From Candidatus Vecturithrix granuli (GTDB lineage Bacteria; Moduliflexota; Moduliflexia; Moduliflexales; Moduliflexaceae), in the NCBI GenBank assembly GCA_000739535.1, contig DF820478.1, positions 1-64,000 on the forward strand: a stretch of DNA of 64,000 bases, in the 5' to 3' direction. The position numbers and the translations under genes are program-made. The notes under the pieces were generated by a model. It had not been told where the DNA came from. It was given only the letters and a program-made list of their open reading frames with translations, and made no database searches. Positions 11,216 to 61,483 of this stretch are shown here, in pieces; the stretch's first letter is position 1, and each line of letters starts with the position of its first letter.

Positions 11216-11534
11216 GGAGTAAGAAGTAAGGAATAAGAAGTGAGGAGTAAGAAGGAAGAAACGAATATAGTGATCCTAAATCATTGGTGTCCTGTCACTT
11301 CGACTTCGCTCAGTGACCGGGTGGTTGTCGAGCAGTGACCGGGTGGTTGTCGAGCAGTGACCGGGTGGTTGTCGAGCAGTGACCGGGTAGTTGTCGAGCA
11401 GTGACCGGATGGTTGTCGAGCGAAGTCGAGACATGAATGACTGAGGATGTCTATAGTAAGTAGTAATTGGTTTTCGGTAAAGAAGTTCTCTTCCTCCTCC
11501 TTACTTCATACTCCTTACTCCCTACTCCCTACTG
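11212..11534. repeat. Nested repeat island with 22-bp tandem repeat
   Basis: Outer arms are GAGGAGTAAGAAGTAAGG-like (11214-11260) and the complementary CCTTACTCCCTACTCCC (about 11500-11533). Inside are the CTTCGACTTCGCT / CGAGCGAAGTCGAG arms of family B (11297-11430). Between these sit five tandem copies of CAGTGACCGGGTGGTTGTCGAG at 11311-11420, with only a few substitutions. The island fills the gap between the cyclase gene and the hydroxylase subunits. Confidence 0.85.
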
Positions 11535-28683: not shown

Positions 28684-28880
28684 AAACCTCACCCCCGGCC
28701 CCTCTCCAAAGGAGAGGGGAGAACTCCCTCCCCTTCGGGGAGCAGGGCTGTTAAGTTCTCGCAAAATAGAGCGTCTCGACTTCGCTCGACGTTCGATATT
28801 CCGGTCATCGAGCGGAGTCGAGATGACAAACATCCACAGAACTTAACAGCCCTGCCCTTCGGCGAGAGTTGGGGAGGGGT
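28684..28880. repeat. Nested palindromes between livK and livH
   Basis: CTCACCCCCGGCCCCTCTCC-type and GGGGAGGGG-type outer sequence encloses the arms CAGGGCTGTTAAGTTCT (28743-28759) and the complement (28838-28854), inside which are TCTCGACTTCGCTCGA (28774-28789) and TCGAGCGGAGTCGAGA (28808-28823), family B. At least three levels of nesting. A close copy of the inner two levels is at 30266-30375. Confidence 0.85.
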
Positions 28881-30042: not shown

Positions 30043-30590
30043 AATAGTTCCTCCTTATATTGGGTTAAGATTACGAATGACACAAAATTCTGAACACAGT
30101 TCCTCAAATCAATCCAATGCTGTTCAACTGAACATTTCTGTGCTTGTCAAGTTTTTTATCTGTCTGGAGAACCAAAAGAATACACCAGGGATTTTTCCTT
30201 AATGTACCTATCACTTCGTGTGCAACTTTCGATGTCATTTTGATGACTAACACTGGCGAGTATGCCAGGGCTGTTAAATTCTCGTCAAAAATTGCGTCTC
30301 GACTTCGCTCGACGCCCGATTTTCCGGTCATCGAGCGAAGTCGAGATGACAAGACTCGTGGAACTTAACAGCCCCGGGCATGTATGTCAAGGGCGCAAGA
30401 CTATCTTTCCCCCTCCTCTCACTCCTCATCCACTTTCACAGGGTGATGTAGGAAAATTGGATGGTATCCTTTAGAGTTGAGGTGTCGCCTGCCTTTCACC
30501 GCCATTTTATGCAGGGATATAGAGCTATTCTCACAGCCAGGTTTCTTGAAGAAACCCGGCTGTTCTTATCTGAAAATTTCTCCATACAGA
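30043..30590. other. Intergenic region livK-iolG
   Basis: No gene. It holds the livK upstream region with its ribosome-binding site, the family B composite at 30266-30375 and an ACCGGG-type hairpin at 30534-30562 (CAGCCAGGTTTCTT and near complement) close to the iolG end. A TTGACA-like sequence occurs on the minus strand near 30145 but without a convincing -10. Confidence 0.5.
30266..30375. repeat. Nested palindrome, family B, second copy
   Basis: CAGGGCTGTTAAATTCT (30266-30282) and AACTTAACAGCCCC (30362-30375) enclose TCTCGACTTCGCTCGA and TCGAGCGAAGTCGAGA. Very like 28743-28854, so livK is bracketed by two copies. Confidence 0.85.
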
Positions 30591-53281: not shown

Positions 53282-53545
53282 TTATTTTCTATGCGATGCT
53301 CTCCGCACTTCGAATCGCTGAATCTGCTCGTAATAGCGATTCAGCGATTCGACTTTCTGGCGCTGTTCGTGTTGGCTGGGCGTCGGTTTCAGCGCCAGGC
53401 CAAACGCCATCAGTTCCAGATATTCTTGCCATTTCTGCTCCAACGGCTTTTTTCCGGCGTTGCGGATTTGTTCATGGCGTTCGGCCTCATTCCAGGCGCG
53501 ATAGCAAGCCAATATTTCTTGTAAGGTGAATGTATTTTTGTTCAT
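53282..53545 (-). CDS. Small hypothetical protein downstream of TIR-FGE
   Basis: 87 residues from MNKNTFTLQEILACYRAWNEA, charged and helical, no signal peptide. Starts 5 bases after the TIR-FGE stop and is followed by the pseudouridine synthase gene. No family is recognised. The open frame continues upstream within the FGE gene, which is ignored. Confidence 0.6.
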   Translation of the reverse strand: MNKNTFTLQEILACYRAWNEAERHEQIRNAGKKPLEQKWQEYLELMAFGLALKPTPSQHEQRQKVESLNRYYEQIQRFEVRRASHRK

Positions 53546-53550
53546 AAGGA

Positions 53551-54831
53551 TTACGAAAGAATCCATGCAACACCACACATCATGCGGAACCCTCCACCGT
53601 CGTATCTGTAGTTTCGTCCGCTCCCGATGCGGTCGGCGCTGCGGAGCCACCTGGACGGGCTGAGCCACGAGCCGCCTCGCAATATTTTTGTATTTTCTTC
53701 GTCTTTATCTTTCCATGGGCTTCCATCTTCTGGTGCCTGCTCATAATTATCATGCCAGTCGTCCGCACACCATTCCCATACATTGCCATGCATGCCATAC
53801 AGGCCCCAGGCGTTCGGCTGCAACTGCCCAACCGGATGGGTTTTCCTGCCTGAATTTTTATCGTACCAAGCATACTCGTGTAAACGTTCGGCTTCATCGC
53901 CAAAGTAAAACAAACCTTCAGACCCGGAGCGGCAGGCGTATTCCCCTTCCGCTTCCGAGGGTAGGCGGAAGGTCATCTCGACTCCGCTCGATGACCGCGA
54001 GGAAGATGCCTCGGTTATCGAGCGAAGTCGAGATAAAAACTCCTGGCAATCGTTCCACGACACTTGTTCCACCGGATATTGACCCCACTTCGTACCTACC
54101 ACTTTTTCATTGAAGTATGACGGATTATTGCCCATGATTTGCAGCCACTGGGCCTGCGTAACCACATACTTCCCCAGCCAGAACCCGGCATGAATCTGCA
54201 CCTCACGGCGCGGCAGTTCCCGACCTTGCTTGAATCCTATAAACATTTGATCGGCCTCCGTTGCGTCCATCATAAAGCGTCCCGGTGGAATCCAGACAAA
54301 TTCCATGCCGGTAATCGGCTCAATCCACTCTTTGAGGCTATTGTCCGCGTCAATGGATTTCACCTGGCCTTCGGCGGCATGAGGCGGCTCAATGTGCTGT
54401 TTTTCGATCTCGTTGCGCAGCGCGCGCAGGAGTTTAGCAAAGCCATTAGCGTCGTGCAGATCCGCCCAGTGGAACGGCCGTAGGCGTTCCGGCACCTCGC
54501 ACGCTTCCAATCGCACCGGGATCAGGTAAATATCCTCGTCCAGTTTCTCTTGCAACACGTCCAGTGCCTCGCTGATTTCCTTCTGAATCACCCCACGTCG
54601 GTTGACCGAATTGTGCGATAAACACGCAAAAAAGAAGTCGGAACTGCGAATGGCCTTGGCGATGTGATATTCGAATTTCTGCCCCGGCAGCAGGTCTTCG
54701 GTATCCATCCATGGTTCAAAGCCCTCGGCCTGTAAGCGTTTGTAAAGCTGCTGCACCTGCACCTGGTCCGCACGGGTATAGCTGAGAAAAATGCGGATCA
54801 AATGTTGGTTATTAGGATTATTCTGGGACAT
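53551..54831 (-). CDS. TIR domain fused to a formylglycine-generating-enzyme-like domain
   Basis: 426 residues. TIR at about 10-145: RIFLSYTRADQVQVQQLY, FEPWMDTEDLLPGQKFEYHI, DFFFACLSHNSV; E54 is a candidate NADase glutamate. FGE-sulfatase (SUMF1) fold at about 165-426: FVWIPPGRFMM, PVEQVSWNDCQEF, MHGNVWEWCADDW, LRGGSW. The copper-binding cysteines of true FGE, expected after RGGS, are missing (LSPSRWLRSADR), so it is unlikely to make formylglycine. Residues about 266-287 come from a family B palindrome. The usual EWEYACR reads EGEYACR. Confidence 0.88.
   Translation of the reverse strand: MSQNNPNNQHLIRIFLSYTRADQVQVQQLYKRLQAEGFEPWMDTEDLLPGQKFEYHIAKAIRSSDFFFACLSHNSVNRRGVIQKEISEALDVLQEKLDEDIYLIPVRLEACEVPERLRPFHWADLHDANGFAKLLRALRNEIEKQHIEPPHAAEGQVKSIDADNSLKEWIEPITGMEFVWIPPGRFMMDATEADQMFIGFKQGRELPRREVQIHAGFWLGKYVVTQAQWLQIMGNNPSYFNEKVVGTKWGQYPVEQVSWNDCQEFLSRLRSITEASSSRSSSGVEMTFRLPSEAEGEYACRSGSEGLFYFGDEAERLHEYAWYDKNSGRKTHPVGQLQPNAWGLYGMHGNVWEWCADDWHDNYEQAPEDGSPWKDKDEENTKILRGGSWLSPSRWLRSADRIGSGRNYRYDGGGFRMMCGVAWILS
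53973..54034. repeat. Family B palindrome inside the TIR-FGE gene
   Basis: TCATCTCGACTCCGCTCGAT and GGTTATCGAGCGAAGTCGAG are near-perfect complements, and match the intergenic copies at 28774 and 30296. It is translated in frame as a serine-rich loop (SITEASSSRSSSGVEM) where FGE proteins normally have about six residues (between SRL and TFRLP). Confidence 0.85.
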
Positions 54832-57286: not shown

Positions 57287-57355
57287 TTTTTCAAGTGTTG
57301 TCTGACTGACGCCAGAGTGCAAACGTCAGATTGCCAACAGCCTGAAAGTGGGACT

Positions 57356-60300
57356 ATGAACATATCAAATTTATTGGGGTCAATACTGGCAGCATATAAA
57401 TTTATGAAAAGATATCCCATTATTCTTACGCATAGAATGGCTTCTATTATCGTCATGCTTTTGCTCTTTCCCTCAGCGATTCAAGCCGGGGAACCCGAGA
57501 TGAAATTCGATCATGTGTTGAATTTGGGGTCGCGCCACACCCAGGTAATGCTTCAAGATCGAGAAGGGTTTCTGTGGTTTGGCTCCGCAGGCGGGGGAGT
57601 CTTTCGCTATGATGCGTATGAGTTGAAACGCTATGGCAGCGGGCAGGATTTGCTTTCGAATGGATTTGTGTATGGTCTTGTTGAAGATGCCCAAGAACCT
57701 TTCGTGCTATGGATCGGCACCAAAGAAGGATTGAACTGGTTTGATCGCAAAACAGGCATATTTACGTATTATAAACATCAACCTGGCAATCCGGCAAGCT
57801 TGAGTCATAATGCGATTAATGATATAGTGCAGGATAGCCGTGATCCACACATTCTCTGGATTGGAACCGAGGGAGGGTTGAACAAATTTGATACCCGGAC
57901 AGAAATTTTTATCTCTTACCATCATGACCCACAAAATGACCAGAGCCTTAGTCATAATGCGGTCTGGAGAATTCTTCAGGATCGTAAAAATCCTGATATT
58001 CTCTGGTTAGGAACCTGGGGCGGCGGGTTGAACAAATTTGATACACGCACGGAACGCTTTATCCACTATCGTCATAATCCTGAAGATGAGACAAGCCTTG
58101 GGGCGTCGAATGAGATTATTGACGCTCTTGCTCAGGATAAGGATGATCCTGACATCCTCTGGATTGGCTGGCATGAAGGACTTGACCAATTTGACACGCG
58201 CTCCGAAACTTTTACGCATTATCGGCATGATCCGCACAATCCAAAGAGTCTGCCGGAAGGACTTGTGGCGTTAATTTATGATGATGGCTATGGACGCCTC
58301 TGGTTAGGAGGCTGGGAGGATGATAATGGCTTAACGATTTTTGACAAGCAGACGCATACCGGCACCAATTATCGCCATGATCCCCACAATCCCCATAGCC
58401 TCAGCGATAATTTAGTGGTTGATGTGTACGAGGATCGCTCCGGAATCTTCTGGATTACGATGGCCTCAGGCAAAGTTGATAAATATGATCCCTGGAATCA
58501 GAATTTTACGACCTATGCCTATGATCAGCAAAATCCGTCTAGTTTGAGTCATAACACGATCACGGCGTTGTATGAAGATCGACAGGGAACCGTGTGGGTG
58601 GGAACACTCTCCGGGTTGAATCGGTTTGATCCTAATACCGACACCTTTACGCGTTATACGAAAACCCCGGAAACTCCGGATTCACTTGATAACAATCGCA
58701 TTCAAACTATTTTCGAAGATCACTCTGGGCATTTTTGGGTCTCTTTTTTTCCTGGTTCCCTTGTAGAATTTGACAGACAGACAGAGAAGGTCATTCGTCG
58801 CTATACTAATGCCGAAGTGTTTACCAGTATAATTGATGATCCTCATGATCCTGAAAATCTTTGGATCGGGATGCGTCCGCAAGGGTTAGCCCGTTTTCAT
58901 AAACCAACAGAAACCTTTACAGTGTACGATCCTTCGCCACAAGATTCCCAAGATGGCGTGACTTATGGACCCATTTACAAAATTCTCCATGATCGAGATG
59001 ATGAGGTGATCTGGCTTGGCGGCTGGGAAGGGGGAGGATTGCGCAAATTTGAGAAACAGACACAGACATTTACCACATATATCGCTGATCCTCAGAAACC
59101 AACGAGCCTTACGGCCAATTCCATTGCCGCATTGTATCAGGATAGGCAGGGTAGGCTCTGGATCGGAACCCTGGGAGGAGGATTGTGTACCTTTCATAAA
59201 GAGAGCGAAACCTTTACGTGTTATGCTTCAAATCAGAAAATACCAACAAATATCAATGGGATCCTGGAAGATGAGGAGGCGAATCTCTGGTTAAGTACGG
59301 ATCTGGGGATTGTGAAATTCAACCCGAGCACAGAAACAGTCGAAAAGCATTATCGCCAAAGCGATGGTTTGCAGGGCGATATGTTCTTTCGAGACAGCAC
59401 TTGCAAGACATCTACCGGAGAATTGTGGTTTGGCGGAATGAATGGCGTGAACCGGTTTCATCCGAAGCACCTAGTAGAAAATCCGCATGTTCCCCCTGTA
59501 GTTCTCACTTCGCTGGCCCAGGCAGGAGAGCACATCTGCCCTGTGGCCTGCGAGTCCACCCCAGCGATCTCCCTGGACTGGCGGCACAATTTTTTTGAAT
59601 TTGAGTTTGTCGCGCTTAACTATACTCGTCCCCAAAACAACCAGTATGCCTATATGTTGGAGGGGGTGGATCAGGAGTGGTTCTATTCCGGTCAAAAACG
59701 CTTCGGACGTTATACCAATCTTGCGCCAGGTACATATACCCTCAAGCTTAAAGCGGCCAATAACAATGGCGTCTGGAATGAACAGGGTACCTCTGTGCAG
59801 ATTACCATTATTCCTCCCTTTTGGGCCACCTGGTGGTTTCGCAGTCTATTGGGCTTCAGCATAGTGGGATTGGTGTTTGGCGGCTTTTGGCTGCGTATCA
59901 AAACCATTGAAAAGCAGAAGCGACTCTTAGCCGCGCAAGTTGCTGAACGTACAAAAGCCCTGTCAGAGCGAACCGATGAATTAGCGCATTCAAATACGGA
60001 ACTTCAAAAAGCCAAAGAACAAGCAGAAGTCGCAAACAAGGCCAAGAGTACCTTTCTGGCAAACATGAGTCATGAACTGCGCACGCCGCTCAATGCCATT
60101 CTGGGGTTTTCACAACTCATGCAGCATGATCCGGCGTTATCTTCAGAACATCGAAACGATCTCAAGATCATTGTCCGCAATGGCGACCACCTGCTGACCT
60201 TGATCAATCAACTGCTGGATATCTCGAAAATTGAAGCCGGCCGCATGACCGTGAATACAACGAACTTTGATATGTATACGCTGTTAGATGAAACCGAAAA

Positions 60301-61483
60301 CATGTTTCGATTGCTAGCCAGAGAAAAACAGATCCATCTTGTGTTTGAAAGGACTCCGGATCTGCCCCGATATATCTGTACCGATGTGGTCAAACTCCGT
60401 CAAATCCTGTTCAATTTGCTCAATAACGCCATCAAATTTACGAAAGAAGGGGGCGTGGCCGTGAGAATAAGAAGTAAAGAAGTCACAGATACAGATCTGG
60501 AGTGCAAAAGCTCTGCTTTTGCAGCAAAAGCAGAGCTTTTGCACTCCGATTCCTTACTCCATCTTGAAATTGAAGATACGGGACCTGGCATCACTCCGCA
60601 AGAGTTAGAATACGTTTTTCAGGCATTCACCCAGACAGAAGCCGGACGGAAGACTCAGGAAGGAACAGGGTTAGGATTAGCAATCAGCCGTAATTTTGTC
60701 GAATTATTAGGAGGGGAGTTACATGTCCAAAGCGAAGTCGGACGCGGAAGTCTTTTTAGCTTGACGATTCCGGTGCAGCGGGTGCATGCTTCTGACCTTG
60801 CAGCAAAATCTCCCACGCGCCGGGTCATCGGACTGGTGTCTGGCCAACCGCATTATCGGATTCTGGTGGTTGATGATAAACAGGATAACCGCTATTTGTT
60901 AATGCGCTTATTGACGCCATTGGGTTTTGATGTACGCGAGGCCAATAATGGCCAGGAAGCCATTACCATCTGGCAAGAATGGCAGCCGAATCTGATCTGG
61001 ATGGATATGCGTATGCCCGTGTTAGATGGCTACAAAGCCACGGAACAGATCAAGGCCACGATGCAAGGTCAGGCCACGGCGATTATTGCCCTCACAGCGA
61101 GCGCCTTTGAAGAAGAGAAAGCCGTGGTGCTCTCGGCCGGCTGCGACGATTTTCTGCGAAAACCGTTTAAAGAAACTGAAATTTTTGACTTGATGCAGAA
61201 ACATTTAGGCGTACAGTATCTCTATAAGGACATGCAGCCCGGCGAAGACGTTGGGGAAGAGAAGCCTTTATTCTCGACGATTGATGTGGCTGCCCTGACT
61301 ACGATACCGACGGAATTACGACAGCGACTCGAACATAGCGTATTAATAGCTGACGTTTCCGGAATTACGGAAATGATCCAGGAAATTTTTGCCTATGATG
61401 CCACACTCGGACAAACGCTGGAGCATCTGGCCGAAGATTTTAAATACAGCCATATCCTGGAAGCCTTGCAAAAGATCACCTAA
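57356..61483 (+). CDS. One-protein two-component hybrid with beta-propeller sensor
   Basis: About 1375 residues. A signal segment ([17 protein letters not shown]) leads into two periplasmic seven-bladed propellers of Reg_prop repeats (many LWIGTxGGLNKFD units), then a Y_Y_Y domain ([16 protein letters not shown]), a membrane helix ([18 protein letters not shown]), HisKA ([18 protein letters not shown]), HATPase, REC ([13 protein letters not shown]) and a helical tail. Members from Bacteroidetes sense polysaccharides and end in an AraC domain; this one has no DNA-binding domain. Residues about 1048-1065 are a translated family A palindrome. Start is uncertain: GTG 57317 or ATG 57404 are alternatives. 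Confidence 0.92.
60499..60547. repeat. 49-base perfect palindrome (family A) inside the hybrid kinase gene
   Basis: Two perfect 24-base arms (GGAGTGCAAAAGCTCTGC...) around one A. Same design as the intergenic copy at 10317. It is translated in frame in the HATPase loop ([16 protein letters not shown]). GAT occurs two bases before it and directly after it, so a 54-base, 18-codon insertion with a 3-base target repeat is possible. Confidence 0.9.

What the first reader, a model, noticed from the sequence alone, without database searches (positions are those of the whole stretch)
53973..54034. A second palindrome family inserted in frame in the TIR-FGE gene
The family B arms at 53973-54034 match the intergenic copies flanking livK and at 11297-11430. 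Translation gives a serine-rich segment exactly where FGE domains have a short turn before the conserved FRLPSEAE strand. With the kinase cases this makes in-gene insertion a recurring event across unrelated repeat families.
Basis: partly seen in the sequence, partly recalled or inferred. Interest (0 to 1): 0.8.

Follow-up and report, generated by a model that had tools for sequence, protein, structure and literature searches.

The report
Mobile hairpin DNA read as protein
A short hairpin-forming DNA repeat, copied through this bacterium's genome almost always between genes, sits here inside a TIR-FGE immune-type gene and is translated in frame as a 21-residue stretch of the protein; this is a new example of a rare but known kind of event, and the repeat's other in-gene copies found in this genome also fall in defence-type genes.

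Summary
The palindrome is real. It occupies 53973-54036 inside a minus-strand TIR-FGE gene (53554-54831) and is read in frame as residues 266-286 (LSRLRSITEASSSRSSSGVEM). It is two inverted 22-nt hairpin units of a repeat abundant in this genome (75-76 perfect double-arm copies, 318 arm hits; none in 39 other genomes scanned). Of 77 sampled sites only three lie inside genes: this one, an HsdR gene (three tandem copies) and a IIG/DrmMI-like methyltransferase. Homologues lack both the serine-rich segment and the palindrome, but the net gain is only 11-15 residues, so native codons were replaced rather than a segment simply added, and no empty-site orthologue was found. AlphaFold puts the segment at a helix end, turn and strand start; the FGE fold is kept. 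In-frame palindromic elements are known (Rickettsia RPEs, intragenic REPs): a new member of a known kind. Best lead: every in-gene host of this unit found here is defence-type (TIR-FGE, four NACHT-FGE paralogues, HsdR, HsdM-like, methyltransferase).

The parts
53554..54831 (-). TIR-FGE gene, 426 aa (stop codon 53551-53553)
   Evidence: TIR_2 residues 14-135, FGE-sulfatase residues 177-417; positive coding score both sides of the palindrome
53974..54036 (-). hairpin-coded protein segment, residues 266-286 LSRLRSITEASSSRSSSGVEM
   Evidence: AlphaFold model: helix 259-277, turn, strand 284-289
54015..54036 (-). hairpin unit 1, TTATCTCGACTTCGCTCGATAA (self-complementary stem TTATC/GATAA)
   Evidence: unit stems covary genome-wide
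53973..53994 (+). hairpin unit 2, inverted relative to unit 1, TCATCTCGACTCCGCTCGATGA (stem TCATC/GATGA)
53995..54014 (.). spacer between the two units; it extends the stem by a few pairs and makes the centre 8 nt longer than canonical copies
53944..53946 (-). codon 296, Gly where all 45 aligned homologues have Trp (SEAEWEY to SEAEGEY), 10 residues after the segment
28743..28854 (.). intergenic 112-bp MITE-like element carrying the same core (livK flank), TIR CAGGGCTGTTAAGTTC
30266..30376 (.). intergenic 111-bp MITE-like element carrying the same core (other livK flank)
11266..11455 (.). composite element of a second type (TATAGTGATCC... ends) with a 22-bp tandem array of core half-units
60499..60547 (+). 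unrelated 49-nt palindrome in frame in the HATPase_c domain of a hybrid sensor kinase (57317-61483)
   Evidence: a GGAGTGCGAAAGC palindrome of the same type lies beside a Y1_Tnp gene at L218

Best explanation
The segment is a copy of a dispersed, non-coding hairpin repeat (an inverted pair of REP-like units with core TCGACTYCGCTC) that landed in, and replaced about 6-10 codons of, the helix-turn-strand junction of the FGE-like domain in an open frame. Shown: membership of the repeat family, the open frame, absence from homologues, and that such copies are rare in genes. Inferred: the hairpin core moved here by copying or gene conversion from elsewhere, or is the residue of a larger element whose outer parts were lost. 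Most such hits in genes would be purged; this one survived because the site tolerates length change and the hairpin can be read without a stop. The peptide is probably tolerated rather than selected, giving an altered junction in a still-folded domain.
For: Exact family arms and hairpin. Family found only in this genome among 40 scanned. Only 3 of 77 sampled sites are inside genes with coding signal on both sides, although about 89% of the window is coding by the same measure, so in-gene copies are survivors. Homologue segments usually 29 residues against 40 here, and 25 in the closest TIR-FGE relative L069, with no similar peptide or palindrome where checked. The HsdR gene is about 64-79 residues longer than plasmid homologues over the same span, the extra lying where its three tandem units sit; the MTase copy is a full 112-bp element with an 11-bp target duplication (123 nt = 41 codons) in frame. 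The model keeps the FGE fold: PvdO Z 31.1, TvpA Z 30.4, human FGE Z 25.1. Unit stems covary in six complementary types, 150 of 181 units paired over 4 or more bases against 38 of 181 with partners shuffled.
Against: No orthologue with an empty site was found (best relative 44% identity in the alignment), so insertion is inferred. Net length gain (33-45 nt) is less than the 62-65 nt repeat. No target duplication or outer arm flanks this copy. SRLRSIT aligns passably with the native KKLSQKT helix end, so part of that stretch could keep native residues. The Trp-to-Gly change at 296 raises the possibility that the protein is no longer under full constraint.
Confidence: 0.8

Rival explanations
1. 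The gene is a decaying pseudogene that happens to remain open; the palindrome is a neutral scar in a protein that no longer works.
For: Otherwise invariant Trp296 is Gly. An HsdM-like gene with an in-frame array is broken by frameshifts.
Against: 426 codons open, coding signal on both sides, both domains far above Pfam cut-offs, confident fold.
Confidence: 0.15
2. The in-frame copies are adaptive: hairpin units and their 15-nt tandem modules supply variable linkers and loops to defence proteins, generating length variation in frame.
For: All in-gene hosts of this unit found are defence-type: TIR-FGE, HsdR, IIG/DrmMI-like MTase, four NACHT-FGE paralogues, HsdM-like. All 15-nt tandem arrays in the genome lie in five such genes, with array length differing between paralogues.
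Against: Only about five independent events; the NACHT-FGE arrays are probably one inherited event; defence genes are often accessory and weakly constrained, which alone could explain it; no population data; the HsdM-like gene is frameshifted; a different palindrome family sits in a sensor kinase, not a defence gene.
Confidence: 0.2
3. The loop is ordinary FGE length variation and the palindrome is a chance coding pattern.
For: Some homologues have 37-45-residue segments here without a palindrome.
Against: Exact match of two 16-nt arms to a repeat with hundreds of hits in the genome and z = -7.3 folding.
Confidence: 0.02

Closest known systems
Rickettsia palindromic elements (RPE)
   Same: Dispersed palindromes translated in frame inside unrelated genes, apparently at sites compatible with the protein fold (as reviewed in PMC10969869)
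   Different: RPEs are about 150 bp in ten families and nearly half are in ORFs; here only about 4% of sampled copies are in genes and the core is a pair of 22-nt hairpin units; sequences were not compared
Intragenic REPs (GTAG- and CGTC-tagged), e.g. Opitutus terrae, Rickettsia conorii (PMC3733652)
   Same: REP dimers coding 20-30 residues inside ORFs; tandem clusters coding 43-82 residues; otherwise mostly intergenic
   Different: Published hosts lean to DNA synthesis and repair genes, here to defence genes; no GTAG tag at the ends of the bare core
Bacterial MITEs
   Same: The intergenic 112-bp form has 16-bp TIRs and about 11-bp target duplications
   Different: The in-gene copy studied has no TIR and no duplication; no transposase with matching ends was found

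Membership tests
In-frame intragenic palindromic repeat (RPE / intragenic REP kind) | Member of a dispersed palindromic family | tested here: met
   318 arm hits, 75-76 perfect double-arm copies
In-frame intragenic palindromic repeat (RPE / intragenic REP kind) | Lies inside a gene and keeps the frame | tested here: met
In-frame intragenic palindromic repeat (RPE / intragenic REP kind) | Absent from homologous genes (inserted) | tested here: inconclusive
   absent from all homologue segments compared; but no close empty-site orthologue, and the net gain is shorter than the repeat
Rickettsia palindromic element (RPE) | Sequence and peptide of a described RPE family | not tested
   RPE sequences were not compared
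GTAG/CGTC REP | GTAG or CGTC tag at one end of the palindrome | tested here: inconclusive
   In-gene units begin TTATC and TCATC; CGTC stems occur in 53 of 181 family units; the CCCT/AGGG form lies in elements ending GGTAGTGG
REP of the RAYT system | Copies flank a cognate Y1_Tnp (RAYT) gene | tested here: inconclusive
   12 Y1_Tnp matches; two lie within about 1 kb of core copies, none is flanked on both sides within 1.5 kb
MITE | Terminal inverted repeats and target duplication | tested here: not met
   In-gene copy: no outer arms or duplication. The intergenic 112-bp form does meet it
FGE-sulfatase domain | Pfam PF03781 above cut-off and FGE fold | tested here: met

The most novel reading that the evidence does not exclude
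In this lineage a REP-like hairpin family enters or persists in coding sequence mainly in anti-phage defence genes (TIR-FGE, TIR-NACHT-FGE, HsdR, HsdM-like, IIG/DrmMI-like methyltransferase), where its units and 15-nt tandem modules act as an in-frame source of loop and linker diversity.
Probability: 0.2. Interest if true: 0.7.

Novelty: new member of a known kind. Interest (0 to 1): 0.42.

Why it matters
It adds a lineage to the short list where palindromic mobile repeats become protein, with a resolvable element anatomy (covarying hairpin unit, 112-bp MITE-like form, frame-neutral 112 + 11 = 123 nt). If the bias to defence genes holds, it would be a simple route by which non-coding repeats diversify immune proteins.

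Tried and rejected
Diversity-generating retroelement: a DNA search with the gene's 3' end (window 53551-53720) found no second copy that could be a template repeat. Autonomous partner of the 112-bp element: no matching paired TIR near 10 DDE_Tnp_1 genes (1.5-kb flanks) or near Y1_Tnp genes, except one complete element next to a partial Y1_Tnp (L213). Family outside this genome: none in 39 other genomes including three of the same family or order. Orthologues: same-order genomes hold only FGE relatives of 43-48% identity, no TIR-FGE orthologue. Chance hairpin: rejected. The 112-bp element is no more open than composition-shuffled sequence (1.22 against 1.15 open frames), so no sign of selection for coding ability. 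Two borderline in-gene sites (L188:3026; L185:4356) were left out because only 33-66 nt of open frame precede them and they probably lie upstream of the true start. Literature searches found no report on this repeat.

Full report
Observation. Arms 53975-53997 and 54012-54034 fold into a 20-bp stem of -45.9 kcal/mol, z = -7.3 against shuffles. On the minus strand it lies inside an intact 426-codon ORF, 53554-54831, with Pfam TIR_2 and FGE-sulfatase domains and coding-like codon use on both sides. It is read as residues 266-286, LSRLRSITEASSSRSSSGVEM, directly before TFRLPSEAE.

The repeat family. The arm motif TCGAGCGRAGTCGAGA has 318 hits in the 8.38-Mb source genome and none for its reversed control. 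Perfect double-arm copies number 71 with a 10-18-nt centre and 5 with a longer one, ours among the latter. None occurs in 39 other genomes scanned, including three of the same family or order. The in-gene copy is two such units in inverted order, with stems TTATC/GATAA and TCATC/GATGA. Unit pairs sit in several larger elements: (i) a 112-bp form with 16-bp terminal inverted repeats CAGGGCTGTTAAGTTC and target duplications, detected in 26 of 49 copies, most often 11 bp, against about 3% of randomly paired flanks; this form includes both livK-flanking copies; (ii) a form with TATAG...CTATA ends, which includes the 11297-11430 array; (iii) a form with GGTAGTGG...CCACTACC ends. The in-gene copy has none of these outer parts.

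Where copies lie. Among 77 sampled sites three have coding signal on both sides well inside one frame, while about 89% of the window is coding by the same measure. Copies are therefore strongly depleted in genes. The three are the TIR-FGE gene; an HsdR gene with three tandem units at 66-nt spacing; and a methyltransferase matching DrmMI and type IIG models with a complete 112-bp element plus duplication, 123 nt or 41 codons. Four HsdR homologues from plasmids have a short segment at that place, without the extra residues. A wider scan for the unit found NACHT-FGE paralogues (three read in full, a fourth at a contig end) with inverted in-frame arrays of a 15-nt module (PFDSA / GVEGS) around the linker before the FGE domain, and an HsdM-like gene, identified by reading its three frames, with the same array but broken by frameshifts. 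All tandem arrays of this module in the genome lie at these five loci. The NACHT-FGE loci came in through their FGE similarity and are probably one inherited event, so independent events number about five.

Test against homologues. In 53 homologue segments from WxxA to SEAEWEY the length is usually 29 residues, range 23-45; ours is 40. The closest full-length TIR-FGE relative (L069, 44% identity in alignment A1) has 25. None has the serine-rich segment, and the long ones examined have unrelated DNA without a comparable hairpin. But the repeat codes for 21 residues while the gain is 11-15, so native codons were replaced or lost. Residue 296, Trp in all 45 aligned homologues, is Gly here: a sign of changed or relaxed constraint, or of a sequence error.

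Structure. AlphaFold (46-sequence alignment, mean pLDDT 81) predicts helix 259-277, a turn and strand 284-289, with block pLDDT 80 and 83 over residues 271-290. The hairpin-coded part is thus the end of a helix, the turn and the start of a strand. The FGE-like domain superposes on PvdO (Z 31.1, 1.9 A, 234 residues), TvpA (Z 30.4) and human FGE (Z 25.1). Surface exposure was not computed. The RGGSW region has no cysteine pair (sequence), so by general knowledge of formylglycine-generating enzymes the domain is FGE-like in fold rather than an active FGE.

Mechanism. Best reading: a mobile or convertible hairpin core replaced part of a tolerant junction in an open frame and survived. How the core moves is not shown. 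Twelve Y1_Tnp matches exist in the genome, but none is flanked on both sides by this core; ten DDE_Tnp_1 genes lack matching paired ends. Openness of the 112-bp form is as expected by composition, so the family is not evidently built for coding.

Comparison. RPEs in Rickettsia (PMC10969869) and intragenic REPs in Opitutus, Rickettsia and others (PMC3733652) are the same kind of event. What differs is the low in-gene fraction, the element anatomy, and hosts that are defence genes where the published ones lean to DNA synthesis and repair.

Noticed in passing
L236, L237, L238, L286 (own genome C20:142000-148500, C18:372300-378800, C9:63500-70000, C18:1-4200): NACHT-FGE paralogues (TIR domain shown on L237 and L238) with in-frame inverted arrays of a 15-nt module (PFDSA / GVEGS) around the pre-FGE linker; array length differs between paralogues.
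   Followed up: partly
L287 around 1400-1540 (own genome C13:104439): HsdM-like gene with the same array (GVEGS)n, apparently broken by frameshifts elsewhere.
   Followed up: partly
window 28743-28854 and 30266-30376: A 112-bp MITE-like element with 16-bp TIRs (family target duplications about 11 bp) on both sides of a livK-like gene; 112 + 11 = 123 nt is frame-neutral.
   Followed up: yes
window 53944-53946: Gly at a position where all 45 aligned FGE-domain homologues have Trp.
   Followed up: no
L218, L212, L220 (own genome C18:825743, C19:63997, C13:26448): Y1_Tnp (RAYT-like) genes next to other palindromes, including the GGAGTGCGAAAGC type found in the kinase gene at 60499-60547.
   Followed up: partly
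window 53310-53352: A perfect 15-bp inverted repeat TCGAATCGCTGAATC / GATTCAGCGATTCGA within a small ORF downstream of the TIR-FGE gene.
   Followed up: no
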